The notes under the pieces are model-generated. The model did not search any database. It saw only the letters and a program-made list of their open reading frames with translations, and was not told where the DNA came from. From contig JAFVPB010000039.1 in assembly GCA_017505525.1 (NCBI GenBank), positions 1 to 64,000 on the forward strand: 64,000 bases of DNA. The letters run 5' to 3'. This DNA is from Clostridia bacterium (lineage in GTDB: Bacteria; Bacillota; Clostridia; UMGS1883). How positions within the stretch are numbered: position 1 is the stretch's first letter; each line of letters starts with the position of its first letter. Positions 35,424-62,161 of the stretch are shown piece after piece. The translations under genes were made by a program, and so were the position numbers.

Positions 35424-35447
35424 CCTTGTTCCAATTTGGAATAAGGT
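35423..35447 (+). repeat. 25-bp stop-codon palindrome, copy 1
   Basis: Arms ACCTTGTTCC and GGAATAAGGT flank AATTT. The first base is the last base of the TGA of the upstream gene. RNA from this orientation folds fully with one G-U pair. Confidence 0.93.
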
Positions 35448-36355: not shown

Positions 36356-37486
36356 GTGAGAGTAGCAATTATTGATGCCGATTTAATCGGCAGAAAAAAT
36401 CATAAATTTCCCAATCTTGCAAGTATGAAGTTATCAGGATATTACAAGGAATTTGCTGATACAGTAGATTTAAAACTTGATTATGAGGGATTGGGCAGCT
36501 ACGATAGGGTATTTGTATCAAAGGCATTTACTGATACGCCTGTTCCTGATTATGTATTGAATATGAAAAATGTTGAATATGGGGGAACAGGCTTTAACTA
36601 TGATAATGCAGTACCTTTATTGCCTGAAATTGAGCATCACAAGCCCGATTATAACCTTTATGATGACTTTGTTGCAGAAAGGGTTAAACAGGGTGTTAAG
36701 CCTGTTTTATTCAGGTATTATACCGATTATTCCATAGGCTTTACAACAAGGGGTTGCTTCAGGAAATGCCCGTTTTGCGTGAACCGTAATTATTCATCTG
36801 TTCAAAAACACAGCCCTTTATATGAATTTGCTGATGATAGCAGAAAGAAAATATGTCTGCTTGATGATAATTTTTTGGGATGCAGAGATTGGGAGCAGAT
36901 TTTAAAAGAATTGCAAGCTACGGGAAAAAGATTTCAGTTTAAGCAAGGACTTGACATCAGACTTCTTGACGAAAAGAAGTGCGAGCTTTTATTTCAAAGC
37001 AAGTATGACGGAGAATTTATATTTGCATTTGATGATATATCCGAATATTCGCTTATAGAGAAAAAACTGAAACTGTTGCGAAAATATACGAACAAAACGG
37101 TGAAATTATATGTGTTCTGTGCGTATGACCGAAACGGAATATGGGATAACAATTTTTGGAGGCAGGACATTTTTGATACCTTTGCAAGAATTGAGCTGCT
37201 GATACATTACAACTGTATTCCGTACATAATGCGATATGAAAAATATGCAGCTTCACCGCATAAAGGTATGTATATCAATATCGCAAGTTGGTGTAATATG
37301 GTTCGTGTTTTAAAAACCTTTACATTCAGAGAATTTTGCATAAAAAACGGGATTGGCTTGTCACGGTACAGATATATGGTTGATTTTGAGAAACAGTTCC
37401 CGGAAGTAAGCAAATATTTTGATATGAGATTTGAACCTTATTCCAAATTGGAACAAGGTTCGGAAAGGAGCAGAATAAATGGATAA
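36356..37486 (+). CDS. Radical SAM-type Fe-S protein
   Basis: The GTG start follows TCGGAGGTG. The 376-residue protein starts VAIIDADLIGRK and carries RGCFRKCPFCVNRN near residue 133; the CxxxCxxC triad should bind the [4Fe-4S] cluster used with S-adenosylmethionine. Following segments (LDDNFLG, FKQGLDIRLLD) fit the barrel. The substrate is unknown. The reading frame runs through a palindrome copy, which encodes PYSKLEQGS near the C-terminus, so the last ~17 residues look added and there is no acidic tail. It overlaps the next gene by 8 bases. Confidence 0.8.
   Translation: MRVAIIDADLIGRKNHKFPNLASMKLSGYYKEFADTVDLKLDYEGLGSYDRVFVSKAFTDTPVPDYVLNMKNVEYGGTGFNYDNAVPLLPEIEHHKPDYNLYDDFVAERVKQGVKPVLFRYYTDYSIGFTTRGCFRKCPFCVNRNYSSVQKHSPLYEFADDSRKKICLLDDNFLGCRDWEQILKELQATGKRFQFKQGLDIRLLDEKKCELLFQSKYDGEFIFAFDDISEYSLIEKKLKLLRKYTNKTVKLYVFCAYDRNGIWDNNFWRQDIFDTFARIELLIHYNCIPYIMRYEKYAASPHKGMYINIASWCNMVRVLKTFTFREFCIKNGIGLSRYRYMVDFEKQFPEVSKYFDMRFEPYSKLEQGSERSRING
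37435..37459 (+). repeat. 25-bp palindrome, copy 3, inside a reading frame
   Basis: Reverse orientation (ACCTTATTCC / GGAACAAGGT). It is the exact reverse complement of copy 1 and is translated as part of the radical SAM gene. Confidence 0.93.
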
Positions 37487-41850: not shown

Positions 41851-42171
41851 TTGAAAGATTACGGATTTAGCATACGGATAGAAAAATCTGATTTAGATAA
41901 AATCCGAGAGAACGCACAGAAAGCCAATATGACAACAACTGCTTATCTCATAAACCGAGCTTTGCGTGATGATCAGATTGTTATTCTTGAAGATTTAAAA
42001 CCCGTATGCCACGAATTAAGAAAAATCGGTACAAATCTCAATCAGCTAACATTGCTTGCCAACAGGGGACGGATAAATTGTGTTAATCTTTCAAAGCTGT
42101 CCGAGGAAGTGGTGAAGCTATGGCAACCATTGAATTTATTAACCGAAAGAACAAAACCTACGAAGCGATGA
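41851..42171 (+). CDS. mobC: MobC-type relaxosome protein
   Basis: The start is a TTG at 41851, seven bases behind GGAGGTG; an earlier in-frame TTG lies in the previous gene. The 106-residue protein has a ribbon-helix-helix-like start (FSIRIEKSDLDKIRENAQKANMTTTAYLINRAL) and the MobC signature LRKIGTNLNQLTLLANRG. It should help the relaxase open oriT. It overlaps the relaxase gene by 52 bases. Confidence 0.85.
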   Translation: MKDYGFSIRIEKSDLDKIRENAQKANMTTTAYLINRALRDDQIVILEDLKPVCHELRKIGTNLNQLTLLANRGRINCVNLSKLSEEVVKLWQPLNLLTERTKPTKR

Positions 42172-43097
42172 AAAGGGTTATAAATTACATAACACGGTCA
42201 GATAAAACCGAGGAAGATTTGGTTTACGGCAATTTATGTAATAAAGATAACGCTTATGATGATTTTGTTCAGTTAAAACAGATGTACGGCAAAGAAAAAG
42301 GAAGGCAGTACATTCACTTTGTTCAATCCTTTTCACCTGATGAAGATATTACCCCGGAGCTTGCTAATGAAATAGCAAGGCGGTTAATATCGCATCCTGT
42401 CTTTGATGGTTTTCAAGTCCTTATTGCAACTCACACAGATACCCCACATATTCATACACATTTTGTAATAAATACTGTAAATTCCGAAACAGGCGAAAAG
42501 TGGCATAAATCAAAGTACGATTTGCAAGCCATAAAAGATTATTCAGATGAATTATGCCGTGAATACGGGCTGAATGTTATTGACAACGAAAATAAGGAAA
42601 AAGGGCATCAGTCAAGCGGAGAATATCGGAGTAAACAAAAAGGCACAAGCTGGAAATATGAATTGTTTTTAGCTGTAACCGCTTGTATGAAAACGGCAAC
42701 AAGCCGTGAGGAATTTATAAATAAAATGAATGAGCTTGGGTATCAGGTAATATGGAAGGACGATAAAACCTATGTAACCTTTATAACCCCTGACGGAAAG
42801 AAATGCAGAAATAAAAAACTGTATCCACCCGAAAGATTTACAAAGGAAAATATGGAAAAAGTCTTTGAAGAAAACCGAAAAAGGCTTGATAGGATTCAGA
42901 GTGAAAAGCGTTGGAATATGCTTGTTGAAGCAATATATCTTTTCGGGAGTAACGCCCGGAAAAATAACAGGAGTAGCAAATATCCTTTGTCTAAACTTGA
43001 AGGCGAAGCACTAAAGGAATATATGTTGCTTCACGATAACGAAGGTGAGATAGATTGGAGTGAGGAAAATGAGAATGAAGCAGACTTTGAACTGTAA
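42120..43097 (+). CDS. MOBP-type relaxase
   Basis: The 325-residue nuclease carries the metal-binding motif HTDTPHIHTHFVINTVN near residue 105 and INYITRSDKT near residue 20. It should nick at oriT and lead the strand through the channel. It is short for the family and lacks a long C-terminal domain. The end is EENENEADFEL, an acidic tail like those on the other soluble ICE proteins; in T4SS systems the relaxase is the classic translocated protein. Confidence 0.88.
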   Translation: MATIEFINRKNKTYEAMKRVINYITRSDKTEEDLVYGNLCNKDNAYDDFVQLKQMYGKEKGRQYIHFVQSFSPDEDITPELANEIARRLISHPVFDGFQVLIATHTDTPHIHTHFVINTVNSETGEKWHKSKYDLQAIKDYSDELCREYGLNVIDNENKEKGHQSSGEYRSKQKGTSWKYELFLAVTACMKTATSREEFINKMNELGYQVIWKDDKTYVTFITPDGKKCRNKKLYPPERFTKENMEKVFEENRKRLDRIQSEKRWNMLVEAIYLFGSNARKNNRSSKYPLSKLEGEALKEYMLLHDNEGEIDWSEENENEADFEL

Positions 43098-52859: not shown

Positions 52860-53213
52860 GTGGGAAGAACAGAAAAAATCCTTGACAGAATAGATGAACT
52901 GTATAAAGGCTTCGTTCAGAAACAACTTGAATGTTCAAAACAGGAGCTTATAAGCAAGGCAGAGGATATTGCTTTTGTAAATAAAATTGCTGATTTACTT
53001 CACGATGATGCAGAAGAATTACCTGAATATCTTGTAGCACATCTGCATAAAGAAGATACATTGTTTTCTGAACTTCTTGGAATGTGGAAGAACGCAGAAC
53101 CTAACCGCAGAGAAGATGAAAATGAAACATTAAGAGGACTTTTTATGCGAAGAAACAGCGAACTTACAGAACTTTATTCGGTTGAGGAAGTGGATGATGA
53201 ATTAGAAATGTGA
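52860..53213 (+). CDS. Acidic-tailed protein in the T4SS operon (DUF3848-like)
   Basis: The GTG start follows AGGAGG. The 117 residues are soluble and helical (LYKGFVQKQLECSKQELISKAEDIAFV...LFSELLGMWKN), recalling DUF3848-type proteins. It ends EEVDDELEM. It is inserted between pilin and VirB6 genes without a palindrome. Confidence 0.65.
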   Translation: MGRTEKILDRIDELYKGFVQKQLECSKQELISKAEDIAFVNKIADLLHDDAEELPEYLVAHLHKEDTLFSELLGMWKNAEPNRREDENETLRGLFMRRNSELTELYSVEEVDDELEM

Positions 53214-53226
53214 GGTGGCATACTGA

Positions 53227-54060
53227 ATGGAAGTCATATTGATTGCCTTAATTTCTGCTCTTTTAAGTGCCGCCTTAAACTATGTCAATAACATATTAAA
53301 CTCTATTGTTCCAATCGCCCTGCACGCCGAGCAGTATATGACAACTCTGCTCGGCGGTTCGGGCTTTCAACAAACCTTTGATGTCATATTCAATTTCGGT
53401 ATTTCTCTGATTGTATTAAAATTCCTAAAGCGTGTATTTGATTCATATATACTCTGGCAAGACGGTGATCCCGATGCCGATCCTATAAACCTTGTAACAA
53501 AGTTTTTAAGGGCGATAGTTATAGCGGTTTCATTCCCAACGCTTTATGACTGGATGGCAACGGCAACCGAGGATATGACTAATCAGATACTTAATTCACT
53601 TTCCGGCAGTTTGTCGGATAGCTTTGCCAATAGCGTAATGGCAATGGCTTCTTTAAATTTGTTCAATGCAGTAATTTCTTTAATATTTTTTATCTGTTTT
53701 TTCTTTCTGTATATTCAATTCCTTATGCGTGGTATGGAGATTCTTATATTAAGAATGGGTATGCCTATTGCCTGTACGGGACTTATGGAAAATGACAGGG
53801 GCGTTTTTGGCCCGTATATGAAAAAGTTTTTCCAAAGCGCCCTGACAGTAGTTGTTCAGATTGCTCTTGCAAAAATGTCCGTTGGTCTTATGATTAACGG
53901 TCATGTGTTTTGGGGTATAGCTGCAATGATGCTTGCACTTAAAACACCGAGATTCCTGCAAGAATTTATGATTACAACAGGAGCAGGGGGCAATCCTATG
54001 AACACTGTTTACCACACAACCCGACTTGTTCAGATGGCAAAATCGGTAATTAAGAAGTAG
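53227..54060 (+). CDS. VirB6/TrbL-like channel protein
   Basis: The 277-residue integral membrane protein has about six helices. The core RGMEILILRMGMPIACTGLMEND and MAMASLNLFNAVISLIF fit TrbL/VirB6 proteins of Gram-positive ICEs. It builds the inner-membrane mating channel. GTGAGGTGG precedes the ATG. Confidence 0.82.
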   Translation: MEVILIALISALLSAALNYVNNILNSIVPIALHAEQYMTTLLGGSGFQQTFDVIFNFGISLIVLKFLKRVFDSYILWQDGDPDADPINLVTKFLRAIVIAVSFPTLYDWMATATEDMTNQILNSLSGSLSDSFANSVMAMASLNLFNAVISLIFFICFFFLYIQFLMRGMEILILRMGMPIACTGLMENDRGVFGPYMKKFFQSALTVVVQIALAKMSVGLMINGHVFWGIAAMMLALKTPRFLQEFMITTGAGGNPMNTVYHTTRLVQMAKSVIKK

Positions 54061-54068
54061 GTGATGCT

Positions 54069-54275
54069 ATGCAGACCATAAACGATATTTCCGCATTACT
54101 TATAAATGTAATCCGAGCCGGACTCGGCTTTAGGGTTATATACTGCTGTATTCAGCTAATGATGGCAGATGAAGAACAGGGTATGTATAAACGGAGAATA
54201 AAAAACTCTATTATTGCTGTTGTTGTCAATGAACTTGTATGGGTTATTAAGGATTTGGTTATTTCGTATTTTTAA
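54069..54275 (+). CDS. Small two-helix membrane protein of the T4SS operon
   Basis: The 68-residue protein (MQTINDISALLINVIRAGLG...) has two hydrophobic stretches separated by a charged loop (MADEEQGMYKRRIKN). It lies 8 bases after virB6 behind TAGGTGATG. No family name; conjugation role inferred from position. Confidence 0.6.
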   Translation: MQTINDISALLINVIRAGLGFRVIYCCIQLMMADEEQGMYKRRIKNSIIAVVVNELVWVIKDLVISYF

Positions 54276-54299
54276 CCTTATTCCAAATTGGAACAAGGT
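54275..54299 (+). repeat. 25-bp stop-codon palindrome, copy 9
   Basis: Reverse orientation, identical to copies 3 and 4; starts at the last A of TAA. Confidence 0.93.
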
Positions 54300-54314
54300 C
54301 AAATAGGAGCTTGT

Positions 54315-54659
54315 ATGAAAGAAATTTATTTACTAAAATCCTGTAACGAGTGGAAAGAAAAGCAGAGTTCAGGAATAGTAGCTGCTACAGATGACAGGCA
54401 TACTTTGCTTGTAATGATAGGCGGTGAAATTCTGATTGGTAATATGAATTACAGCGGTTTGCAAAAAGACGAAGCATATATGAAGCTATGCGAAGATATT
54501 GCAAAGGGCATTGAGGTTGAAAAGAATATTGAATATGGTTATGTTGAAACAGTAGAGGTTATATCTGAAAATGACAGAGAAGCATTAAAAGAGCGATATA
54601 ATAATTTAATAGGTTTTCTTCCTAACCCTGAAACGGACGAGGAAGATTTGGAGTTGTGA
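54315..54659 (+). CDS. Acidic-tailed gene unit inserted in the T4SS operon
   Basis: The ATG at 54315 follows ATAGGAG; the longer frame starts inside a palindrome. The 114-residue soluble protein (MKEIYLLKSCNEWKEK...) ends TDEEDLEL. It is flanked by palindromes in opposite orientations (54275 and 54660). Its neighbours are T4SS membrane genes, so the whole 0.4-kb unit looks like an inserted cassette. Function unknown. Confidence 0.72.
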   Translation: MKEIYLLKSCNEWKEKQSSGIVAATDDRHTLLVMIGGEILIGNMNYSGLQKDEAYMKLCEDIAKGIEVEKNIEYGYVETVEVISENDREALKERYNNLIGFLPNPETDEEDLEL

Positions 54660-54684
54660 CCTTGTTCCAATTTGGAATAAGGTC
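54660..54684 (+). repeat. 25-bp stop-codon palindrome, copy 10
   Basis: Forward orientation, identical to copy 1 and the exact reverse complement of copy 9. It starts at the last A of TGA. Confidence 0.93.
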
Positions 54685-54712
54685 ACTTTGCGAAGGAGAG
54701 TGATTATCATAT

Positions 54713-55021
54713 ATGAAATTGTATATTCCTGAAGGTGTCAAAACAAAGTCGGAAATATTTAACGGCTTTGGTGCAGCACAGTTTATTCAGACCGCCCTTG
54801 TTACAGCAGTAGCAGGGGTTATTTCTTTTATTGCCTATACGGTACATCAAAATCTCCCGTTTTTAATTACATCAATCCTTATTGTATGTGCGGCAACAGT
54901 AACCGTGCTTACAAAGGATTCAACCAATCAAAGCGTAGTTGATTACGCAAAAAATATGATTGCATTTTCAAGAACGCAGAAGAAATACAGCTATCAGAGC
55001 AGAGAGGAGCTTTTTAAATGA
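54713..55021 (+). CDS. PrgI/VirB3-like membrane protein
   Basis: The 102-residue protein has two adjacent membrane helices (residues ~25-65) and a C-terminal YAKNMIAFSRTQKKYSY, the PrgI-family pattern. It sits directly before virB4, as VirB3 homologues do, and overlaps it by four bases. Confidence 0.8.
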   Translation: MKLYIPEGVKTKSEIFNGFGAAQFIQTALVTAVAGVISFIAYTVHQNLPFLITSILIVCAATVTVLTKDSTNQSVVDYAKNMIAFSRTQKKYSYQSREELFK

Positions 55022-60384: not shown

Positions 60385-61575
60385 TTGAAATTTATTGATT
60401 TTTTTGCAGGGATAGGCTGCTTTTCGTTAGGACTTGAAAAAGTTGGTTTTGAAAAGGTAGGCTACTGTGAAATAGATACATTTGCGGTTAAGAGTTTTAA
60501 CGCCATACATGATATGAAGGAGGGCGATTGTTGGTATGAAAAGGATATTAGAACAGTTACACCCGAAAGCGTTCCAAACGCTGACATCTGGACAGCGGGA
60601 TTCCCTTGTCAGGATGTTTCAGTCTGCGGTCAGCAAAGAGGGATTAACGGAGAGAGAAGCGGTTTGTTTTTTGAACTTGTTAGGTTGCTCAAAGGCAAAG
60701 CTCCCGAAAATCGCCCCGAATGGCTTATCATTGAAAATGTTAAAAATCTCTTATCCGTTAATCACGGATGGGATTTTACCGAGGTTTTGTATTCGTTGGC
60801 CTCACTCGGCTATGATATTGAGTACGGACTTCTTAATTCAAGATTCTTTGGCGTTCCTCAAAACAGAGAGCGAATATATATTGTCGCTCGAAGATATACT
60901 GGAAAACGAAGTGGACGAAAAGTATTTCCTATCACAGCAACAGACGGAAAAAGTCTTATCCAACTTATAGGAGGACAGCAGGGCAACCGTGTATATGATG
61001 TCAGAGGTTGCTCAACCACTATGACAGCCAACGGTGGAGGTCAGGGTGCAAAAACAGGACTATATTTAACAAATTTCAGTTTTATGGATTTAAACAAAAA
61101 CAGCGTTATAACAAACATTTCAAGATGTGTTAAAGCAAGAATAAATGCCGGAATTACGAACCGTTCAGGGGATAATTCCGGCGTTCTTTGTGTCTGTGTG
61201 AGAGCTTTTATAACACCTGACAGAGAAACTAAAAGACAAAACGGACGGAGAATGAAGGAAAGCGGAGAGCCTATGTTTTGTCTTACTACTCAGGATAAAC
61301 ACGGCATTGCAATATGCAGTTGTGAAAAGTGTATCTACAATATGGATATGGAAACCTTTGGCTGCTGTATCAGAATACGCAGATTAACGCCCCGTGAGGC
61401 TTGGAGATTACAGGCTATTGAAGATAAATACTTTGATAAAGCTGCGGCGGTAAACTCGGATGCACAGCTATACAAGCAAGCCGGAAACAGCGTTACGGTA
61501 TCGGTAGTTTATGCAATCGGTATGAAAATAAAAGAAATAGCTGAAGCAGAACGAGGTGCAGAGCATGAAGTTTAA
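60385..61575 (+). CDS. DNA (cytosine-5) methyltransferase
   Basis: A TTG start follows AAAGGAG. The 396-residue protein has motif I DFFAGIGCFSLGLEKVGF, motif IV AGFPCQDVS (catalytic Cys near 76), motif VI IIENVKNL, motif VIII QNRERIYIV, and the end motifs LTPREAWRLQ and QAGNSVTVSVV. No restriction enzyme is nearby, so it is an orphan, probably protecting ICE DNA from host restriction. It overlaps the MT-A70 gene. Confidence 0.93.
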   Translation: MKFIDFFAGIGCFSLGLEKVGFEKVGYCEIDTFAVKSFNAIHDMKEGDCWYEKDIRTVTPESVPNADIWTAGFPCQDVSVCGQQRGINGERSGLFFELVRLLKGKAPENRPEWLIIENVKNLLSVNHGWDFTEVLYSLASLGYDIEYGLLNSRFFGVPQNRERIYIVARRYTGKRSGRKVFPITATDGKSLIQLIGGQQGNRVYDVRGCSTTMTANGGGQGAKTGLYLTNFSFMDLNKNSVITNISRCVKARINAGITNRSGDNSGVLCVCVRAFITPDRETKRQNGRRMKESGEPMFCLTTQDKHGIAICSCEKCIYNMDMETFGCCIRIRRLTPREAWRLQAIEDKYFDKAAAVNSDAQLYKQAGNSVTVSVVYAIGMKIKEIAEAERGAEHEV

Positions 61576-62134
61576 ATGTATCTATGCCGATCCGCCGTGG
61601 CAGTATAAGGTTTATTCAAAAAAAGGTCAGGGGCGAAGTGCAGAAAATCATTACAGAACAATGAGCAAAGAGGATATATTTTCACTTCCCGTATCAGAGA
61701 TTGCGGATGATGATTGTATCCTCTTTCTTTGGGTAACATTTCCGTGCTTGCTTGAAGGTCTTGAAACAATAAAACGGTGGGGATTCCAATATAAAACATT
61801 GGGCTTCTGCTGGGTAAAACGCTGTAAGAAACAAACTGAAAAATGGTTTTGGGGTTTAGGCTTCTGGACGAGGGCTAACCCTGAAATCTGCATAATAGCA
61901 ACGAAAGGAAATCCAAAACGAATTTCAAAGGGAGTACATTCCGTTATAGATACACCGATTGAAGCACATAGCAAAAAGCCTGATGAAGTCAGGAAAAGGA
62001 TTGTGGAGCTTGTCGGTGATATTTCACGGATAGAACTCTTTGCAAGAGAAGAACAGACCGGATGGTTTTCGCTTGGAAATGAAATAGACGGTATGGATAT
62101 TCGGGATAGTCTTATTGAAATTGCAAAAATGTAA
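61565..62134 (+). CDS. MT-A70-family adenine methyltransferase
   Basis: The ATG at 61565 (GAGGTG upstream) overlaps the previous gene by 11 bases. The 189-residue protein carries the DPPW motif (IYADPPWQYKVY, residues 6-17) and ILFLWVTFPCL, as in phage and ICE adenine methylases. With the cytosine methylase it forms a two-gene modification unit between the Tad genes. Confidence 0.9.
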   Translation: MKFKCIYADPPWQYKVYSKKGQGRSAENHYRTMSKEDIFSLPVSEIADDDCILFLWVTFPCLLEGLETIKRWGFQYKTLGFCWVKRCKKQTEKWFWGLGFWTRANPEICIIATKGNPKRISKGVHSVIDTPIEAHSKKPDEVRKRIVELVGDISRIELFAREEQTGWFSLGNEIDGMDIRDSLIEIAKM

Positions 62135-62136
62135 TA

Positions 62137-62161
62137 ACCTTATTCCAATTCGGAACAAGGT
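62137..62161 (+). repeat. 25-bp palindrome, copy 11
   Basis: Reverse orientation; exact reverse complement of copy 8. The gene stop is followed by a second TAA whose last A starts the palindrome. Confidence 0.92.

What the first reader, a model, noticed from the sequence alone, without database searches (positions are those of the whole stretch)
54275..54684. A complete tag-plus-palindrome cassette inserted into the T4SS operon
Between a small channel gene (54069) and PrgI (54713) lies one acidic-tailed gene bounded by palindromes in opposite orientations. The other members of this operon are membrane or ATPase parts of the channel. This looks like a cassette copied from the 35-41 kb array, and it is the clearest local case for mobility of the unit.
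Basis: partly seen in the sequence, partly recalled or inferred. Interest (0 to 1): 0.65.

Follow-up and report, generated by a model that had tools for sequence, protein, structure and literature searches.

The report
Palindrome-bounded gene in conjugation operon slot
In a mobile element of gut bacteria, one extra gene sits between two DNA-transfer-machine genes, fenced by copies of a palindrome found mainly in such elements; relatives have nothing there or a toxin-antitoxin pair, so this is an exchangeable accessory slot.

Summary
A 114-aa acidic-tailed gene (54315-54659) lies between the T4SS pilin gene (54069-54275) and prgI (54713). It is bounded by palindromes at 54273-54301 and 54656-54686 whose cores are exact reverse complements. 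None is expected by chance; the genome has 20, in two contigs. The slot is variable. Ten relatives have pilin directly before prgI, with no gene and no palindrome. The closest relative (TrbL 90% identical) has the same first palindrome in the same place and orientation, then a Phd/YefM-PIN toxin-antitoxin pair, then a second palindrome. In the main array, palindromes also mark exchange points: three related elements carry different genes or orders between them. Two claims need correction. The gene is not a copy of any gene in this element's array; its only diverged homologue found sits in another element's array. And tail and palindrome are separable. The palindrome is not a conserved transcript hairpin, an intrinsic terminator at this slot, a pdif site or an attC site, and the nearby invertase uses other sites. 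The best mechanism is recombination through repeated palindromic linkers. The product is probably a T4SS-delivered cargo protein (inferred).

The parts
54069..54275 (+). T4SS pilin gene (PF18895), 68 aa, upstream border of the slot; its stop codon is the first triplet of palindrome 1
   Evidence: Pfam E 4.9e-7
54273..54301 (+). palindrome 1, 'A-first' core orientation CCTTATTCCAAATTGGAACAAGG; same place and orientation in relative G251
54305..54309 (+). Shine-Dalgarno AGGAG of the module gene
   Evidence: sequence
54315..54659 (+). module gene, 114 aa, soluble, no Pfam or NCBIfam family; probable T4SS cargo protein
54627..54656 (+). codons of the acidic C-terminal tail PETDEEDLEL
   Evidence: tail comparison
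54656..54686 (+). palindrome 2, 31 bp, 'G-first' core orientation (reverse complement of palindrome 1 core)
   Evidence: (I2)
54713..55021 (+). prgI (PF12666), downstream border of the slot
   Evidence: Pfam E 4.9e-6
53227..54060 (+). TrbL/VirB6-like channel gene (PF19597), used to find relatives of the slot
   Evidence: Pfam 5e-112
52860..53213 (+). second acidic-tailed gene in the T4SS operon, no palindrome; allele swapped in relative L007
34659..41492 (+). main array: acidic-tailed genes separated by palindromes at 35424, 36312, 37436, 38694, 39327, 40330, 40705, 41470
42120..43097 (+). relaxase (PF03432) with a related acidic tail (NENEADFEL)
   Evidence: (Pfam 1.1e-39)
62138..62160 (+). 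further palindrome, just after two DNA methyltransferase-like genes (60385-62134)

Best explanation
The interval 54273-54686 is a one-gene accessory module in a variable slot between the pilin and prgI genes of the T4SS operon of an ICE. Its borders are two copies of an element-specific palindromic linker (TRACCTTRTTCCAAWTTGGAAYAAGGTY). The linker supplies the stop codon of the gene before it and is followed directly by the ribosome-binding site of the gene after it. Because the same linker is repeated through the element and its relatives, everything between two linkers (RBS, gene, tail) can be exchanged as a unit. The most likely mechanism is homologous recombination or gene conversion through the linker; a dedicated recombinase is possible but none was found. 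The product carries the acidic C-terminal tail shared by this element's cargo genes and, in related form, by its relaxase and a co-resident MobA/MobL relaxase. It is therefore most likely a protein passed through the T4SS to help the element establish in a recipient. SHOWN: borders, variable occupancy, gene permutation between linkers, sharing of the tail. INFERRED: the exchange mechanism and delivery through the T4SS.
For: Empty slot (no gene, no palindrome) in 10 relatives: L034-L038, L041-L044, L046. Closest relative G251: the same first palindrome, then a Phd/YefM antitoxin and PIN toxin, then a second palindrome. Other occupants in relatives without palindromes: YefM/ParE pair (L047), 282-aa gene (L033), metallophosphatase-like gene (L032). 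Array permutation: window order 34659|35475|...|40372|40828; G147 order 34659h|35475h|40828h|40372h at 38-62% identity; in G251 a 162-aa gene lies between 35475h and 40828h. Each boundary is a palindrome. Sequences 3' of the palindrome travel with the gene that follows. Linkers look homogenised within an element: all 5 in G147 are perfect palindromes, while 17 of 19 in the window's contig are one-arm variants. Tail: strict motif in 16/78 ICE genes against 0/19 in the host flank and 0/62 at other loci. The MobA/MobL relaxase on contig C15 ends DDEELEL. A homologue of the gene lies in an array in MT836959.
Against: Only one other palindrome-bounded occupant of this slot was found, and no nearly identical pair of elements with and without the module. 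The two palindromes here are inverted, which does not follow from integration of a one-site circle. A tailed gene (52860) was swapped in L007 with no palindrome, and insertions in relatives lack palindromes, so palindromes may be passengers. In G341, G165 and G060 the relaxases lack the tail although cargo proteins have acidic tails. No experiment supports translocation.
Confidence: 0.65

Rival explanations
1. The palindromes are sites for a dedicated site-specific recombinase, so the element carries an integron-like or pdif-like module system in which single genes are moved by an enzyme.
For: 29-bp near-symmetric site with two half-site types occurring in both orientations; module content includes a toxin-antitoxin pair with its own consensus promoter, as in pdif modules (PMC13141974); gene permutation between sites.
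Against: The strongest local candidate, tyrosine recombinase 81159 (its gene lies 0.7 kb from a palindrome), belongs to a family flanked by different inverted sites, ACATAATnnnnATTATGT, and is present in G123, where no palindromes were found. Crossover between oppositely oriented sites should give A/A sites; none of 35 is A/A. The sites do not alternate in orientation as pdif sites must.
Confidence: 0.15
2. The palindromes are RNA elements (terminators, or hairpins that insulate or stabilise cistrons) that accompany each gene; module exchange is ordinary recombination unrelated to them.
For: They lie exactly between stop codon and SD; the RNA hairpin at 54640-54715 is stable (z -3.8); several copies are followed by T runs and look like terminators, for example 41470 at the array end.
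Against: The one variable inner pair is broken (A-C) in 10 of 30 distinct sequences, and pairing is no better than in shuffles (494/500 shuffles as high). Neither copy at this slot is followed by a U tract, and the terminator scan misses both. Both core orientations occur, with weaker hairpins for one of them (-9.6 against -14 to -20 kcal/mol).
Confidence: 0.2
3. The palindrome is a small repeat element that spreads by itself and prefers gene ends; the gene at 54315 was an operon member before the palindromes arrived.
For: Palindromes occur singly at intergenic places without cargo genes (G049, G082, G097); 33 of 35 carry TAA/TGA at the 5' edge even where no long reading frame ends there.
Against: 10 relatives lack the gene at this place, and three others have unrelated genes there; G251 has the palindrome but not the gene.
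Confidence: 0.1

Closest known systems
pdif (dif) modules of Acinetobacter plasmids (PMC13141974)
   Same: one- or two-gene modules, often toxin-antitoxin pairs, bounded by about 28-bp near-palindromic sites in inverse orientation and shuffled between replicons
   Different: site sequence unrelated to XerC/XerD binding sites; orientations do not alternate; located in a Clostridia ICE; no recombinase identified; most genes share a C-terminal tail
Integron gene cassettes (attC)
   Same: single-gene units bounded by palindromic sequence, order varying between elements
   Different: no GTTRRRY-type core in the palindrome, no integron integrase identified, stop codon is part of the site, fixed genes interspersed
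Polyvalent and accessory proteins of T4SS conjugative elements (Iyer et al. 2017, PMC5512222)
   Same: arrays of accessory genes beside the T4SS of Firmicutes ICEs, including a gene whose product is related to Toprim-type proteins; proposed delivery with the DNA
   Different: that paper was searched for acidic tails and secretion signals and none is described; here one C-terminal motif is shared by unrelated small proteins, and modules are palindrome-bounded
REP/BIME or MITE-type short palindromic repeats
   Same: short palindromes repeated at gene ends in both orientations
   Different: confined almost entirely to one ICE and its relatives; mark exchange boundaries; no RAYT-type transposase looked for or identified

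Membership tests
pdif/Xer modules | site made of XerC (for example ATTTCGTATAA) and XerD (TTATGTTAAAT) binding halves with a 6-bp spacer | tested here: not met
   site is TRACCTTRTTCCAAWTTGGAAYAAGGTY with a 5-nt centre; compared with the pdif table in PMC13141974
pdif/Xer modules | sites alternate in orientation (C and D modules) | tested here: not met
   order on the contig: GU GU AC AC GU GU GU GU AC GU AC GU AC AC GU GU AC perfect perfect
pdif/Xer modules | recombination needs XerC/XerD | not testable with these tools
   needs an experiment
integron cassettes | attC core GTTRRRY / RYYYAAC | tested here: not met
   the palindrome holds GTTCCAA, not GTTRRRY (sequence)
intrinsic terminators | hairpin followed directly by a U tract | tested here: not met
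   not met for the two copies of this finding; some other copies do have T runs
conserved RNA structure | base pairs kept by compensatory change | tested here: not met
   pair 8-22 broken in 10 of 30; paired cells 91.9% against 93.0% in shuffles
T4SS cargo protein of an ICE | encoded within or beside the T4SS and relaxase genes | tested here: met
T4SS cargo protein of an ICE | C-terminal signal shared with the relaxase | tested here: inconclusive
   related tails on relaxases of the window ICE, G251, G161 and the C15 element; absent from relaxases of G341, G165 and G060
T4SS cargo protein of an ICE | translocation into recipients | not testable with these tools
   needs a translocation assay

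The most novel reading that the evidence does not exclude
Clostridia ICEs carry a previously undescribed module-exchange system: a 29-bp palindrome that contains the stop codon is the exchange site (possibly for a dedicated enzyme), and the modules encode proteins with a shared acidic C-terminal signal that sends them through the T4SS, so the element keeps a swappable set of delivered proteins, some lodged in the T4SS operon itself.
Probability: 0.2. Interest if true: 0.85.

Novelty: new variant of a known kind. Interest (0 to 1): 0.55.

Why it matters
If right, ICEs in gut Clostridia have a modular layout in which delivered proteins, toxin-antitoxin pairs and methyltransferases can be exchanged at marked junctions, even inside the operon for the transfer machine. 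The shared C-terminal tail would be a testable T4SS translocation signal in Gram-positive bacteria, and would let one predict cargo proteins by eye from sequence. The palindrome gives an exact marker for finding module borders in metagenomes.

Tried and rejected
Copy of a local array gene: no homologue among the element's proteins. Recombinase 81159 as the enzyme of the palindrome: its family has its own flanking inverted sites. Terminator, Rfam family, conserved RNA hairpin. Structure prediction of the 114-aa protein: mean pLDDT 48, unusable, so no fold search was run. Palindrome in plasmids, phages or IMG/VR: only chance-level or no hits. Homologues of the gene in plasmids and IMG/VR: none. 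TrbL relatives in IMG/VR and this DNA region in plasmids: none. Tail and palindrome as one mobile tagging unit: rejected, since each occurs without the other. Protein membrane or exclusion function: no hydrophobic segment (maximum 19-residue hydropathy 1.18).

Full report
OBSERVATION. The two palindromes are real and exact: 54273-54301 and 54656-54686. The window holds 11 copies with up to 3 mismatches, against 0.00 expected from shuffles. The whole genome holds 20: 19 on this contig between 35 and 106 kb and 1 on contig C15. Between the two lies one gene, ATG 54315 to TGA 54659, 114 aa, ending PETDEEDLEL. The upstream neighbour is a T4SS pilin (PF18895) and the downstream neighbour is PrgI (PF12666). 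The operon also holds TrbL (53227), a VirD4-like protein (50819), a VirB4-like protein (55635) and a second acidic-tailed gene at 52860, so the statement that all other members are channel parts is not quite right.

ANATOMY OF THE PALINDROME. Over 35 copies from this and related genomes the consensus is TRACCTTRTTCCAAWTTGGAAYAAGGTY. In 33 of 35 the 5' edge is TAA or TGA. For the array genes, the pilin gene and this gene that triplet is the actual stop codon, and the SD of the next gene follows within about 5-17 nt. Cores come in two mirror forms (GU-type and AC-type on the coding strand) plus perfect ones; an A/T-perfect form never occurs. On the transcript the only variable inner pair is broken in 10 of 30 distinct sequences, so pairing of the RNA is not what is conserved. 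The symmetry therefore looks like a DNA-level property. Neither copy at this slot has a U tract.

THE SLOT. A TrbL search of 391 genomes of the class gave 18 genomes with relatives. In ten loci (L034, L035, L036, L037, L038, L041, L042, L043, L044, L046) the pilin gene is followed directly by prgI with -4 to 23 bp between them and no palindrome. Three other relatives have a foreign gene or pair there without palindromes: a YefM/ParE pair (L047), a 282-aa gene without a Pfam family (L033) and a metallophosphatase-like gene (L032). The closest relative, G251 (TrbL 90% identical, DNA 77%), has the same palindrome in the same place and orientation after the pilin gene. It is followed by a Phd/YefM antitoxin gene (PF02604, E 2.6e-6, just under the curated cut-off), a PIN toxin gene (PF13470) and a second palindrome in direct orientation. 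That pair has its own consensus promoter (TTGACA-17-TATAAT) and a terminator-like hairpin (read). The contig ends before prgI, so the right border of the slot in G251 is inferred. Two near-identical MAG loci (L006, L007) carry the same module as the window. The simplest history is: empty slot, first palindrome gained in the ancestor of G251 and the window, then different modules behind it.

MODULES ELSEWHERE. In the 34.6-41.5 kb array, genes are separated by palindromes. G147 has homologues (38-62% identity) of four of these genes, each ending in an acidic tail and a palindrome, but with 40828h before 40372h and directly after 35475h. G251 has a 162-aa gene between 35475h and 40828h. The DNA just 3' of a palindrome resembles the homologous junction of the gene that follows, wherever that gene has moved, so the exchanged unit is RBS + gene + tail. 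All five G147 palindromes are perfect, while 17 of 19 in the window's contig are one-arm variants, as if linkers are homogenised within an element. Exchange without palindromes also happens: in L007 the tailed gene at 52860 differs (60-80% DNA identity) from the window while both flanks are 93-100% identical, and in G047 a gene pair led by an antitoxin-like gene sits between virB4 and the 57505 homologue with no palindrome. General recombination can therefore do the job, and the palindrome is best read as a convenient homology block rather than a required site.

THE PROTEIN. There is no Pfam or NCBIfam family, only weak PHROG matches, and no homologue in this element. One homologue (35% over residues 4-81) lies in MT836959, filed as a phage but evidently an ICE fragment. 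There it directly follows a 35475 homologue and ends in an acidic tail of its own (EADYGEEL). So the family belongs to the cargo-array gene pool. The strict tail motif is found in 16 of 78 ICE genes, 0 of 19 host-flank genes and 0 of 62 genes at other loci. A related tail ends the relaxase (NENEADFEL), the relaxase of G251, and a MobA/MobL relaxase of another relaxase family on contig C15 (DDEELEL). The other relaxases of the genome (L088, L095, L097) do not end in the motif. Homologues of array genes in more distant elements have different C-terminal ends that are shared within each element. This fits a translocation signal read by each element's own coupling protein, but relaxases of G341, G165 and G060 do not share the acidic tail of their neighbours. 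Delivery through the T4SS is proposed for such accessory proteins in general (PMC5512222); no acidic tail was found described there.

MECHANISM AND RIVALS. Best: exchange by homologous recombination or gene conversion through repeated linkers (0.65 for the composite module-and-cargo statement). A dedicated recombinase (0.15) lacks a candidate: 81159 belongs to a family whose genes are flanked by ACATAATnnnnATTATGT inverted sites and it looks like a DNA invertase. An RNA role (0.2) is weakened but not excluded for copies with T runs. Self-spreading of the palindrome with an older resident gene (0.1) conflicts with the empty and differently filled slots.

KNOWN AND NEW. It works like pdif modules in layout (PMC13141974) but fails the sequence and alternation tests, and fails the attC core test. 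It is filed as a new variant of a known kind: modular accessory regions of ICEs with an unusual palindromic linker. The pattern is rare: 5 other genomes of 391 in the class, a further one found in a family sample, and none but this one in a 329-genome phylum sample.

Noticed in passing
window 52860-53213; L007 200-553: An acidic-tailed gene in the T4SS operon is allele-swapped between two nearly identical elements, with breakpoints close to the gene ends and no palindromes.
   Followed up: partly
L004 (contig C15): A mobilisable element in the same genome has a MobA/MobL relaxase ending in DDEELEL, the ICE-type tail, and a variant palindrome; the same palindrome variant with the same flanks occurs in G191. 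It may use the ICE's transfer machine.
   Followed up: partly
window 60385-62160: Two DNA methyltransferase-like genes sit inside a Tad-like gene run and are followed by a palindrome at 62138; possibly another inserted module.
   Followed up: no
L002 about 2022-2334 (C14 82022-82334): Inverted ACATAATnnnnATTATGT sites next to tyrosine recombinase 81159 and upstream of a large surface-type protein gene: a likely phase-variation invertible switch. Similar site pairs lie by homologous recombinases in G123, G147, G251 and on contig C61.
   Followed up: partly
window 36356-37486: The gene has a CFRKCPFC motif and reads through a palindrome (37436) instead of stopping in it, so its last residues are encoded by the palindrome.
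   Followed up: no
L071, L072, L075 (G097, G123, G055): Homologues of array genes in other elements have other C-terminal ends shared by unrelated neighbours (for example KSVKRSVPELG and KSVKRTGPELG; KQKSIDKGAR), suggesting element-specific C-terminal signals.
   Followed up: partly
L048 (MT836959): A record filed as a bacteriophage from human faeces looks like an ICE cargo-array fragment.
   Followed up: no
window 41470; L024 1645: The palindrome at the array end is followed by a T run in both the window and G251 and may have become a terminator.
   Followed up: partly
L003 10854-15696 (C14 110854-115696): Three large serine recombinase genes in a row near the right part of the element.
   Followed up: no
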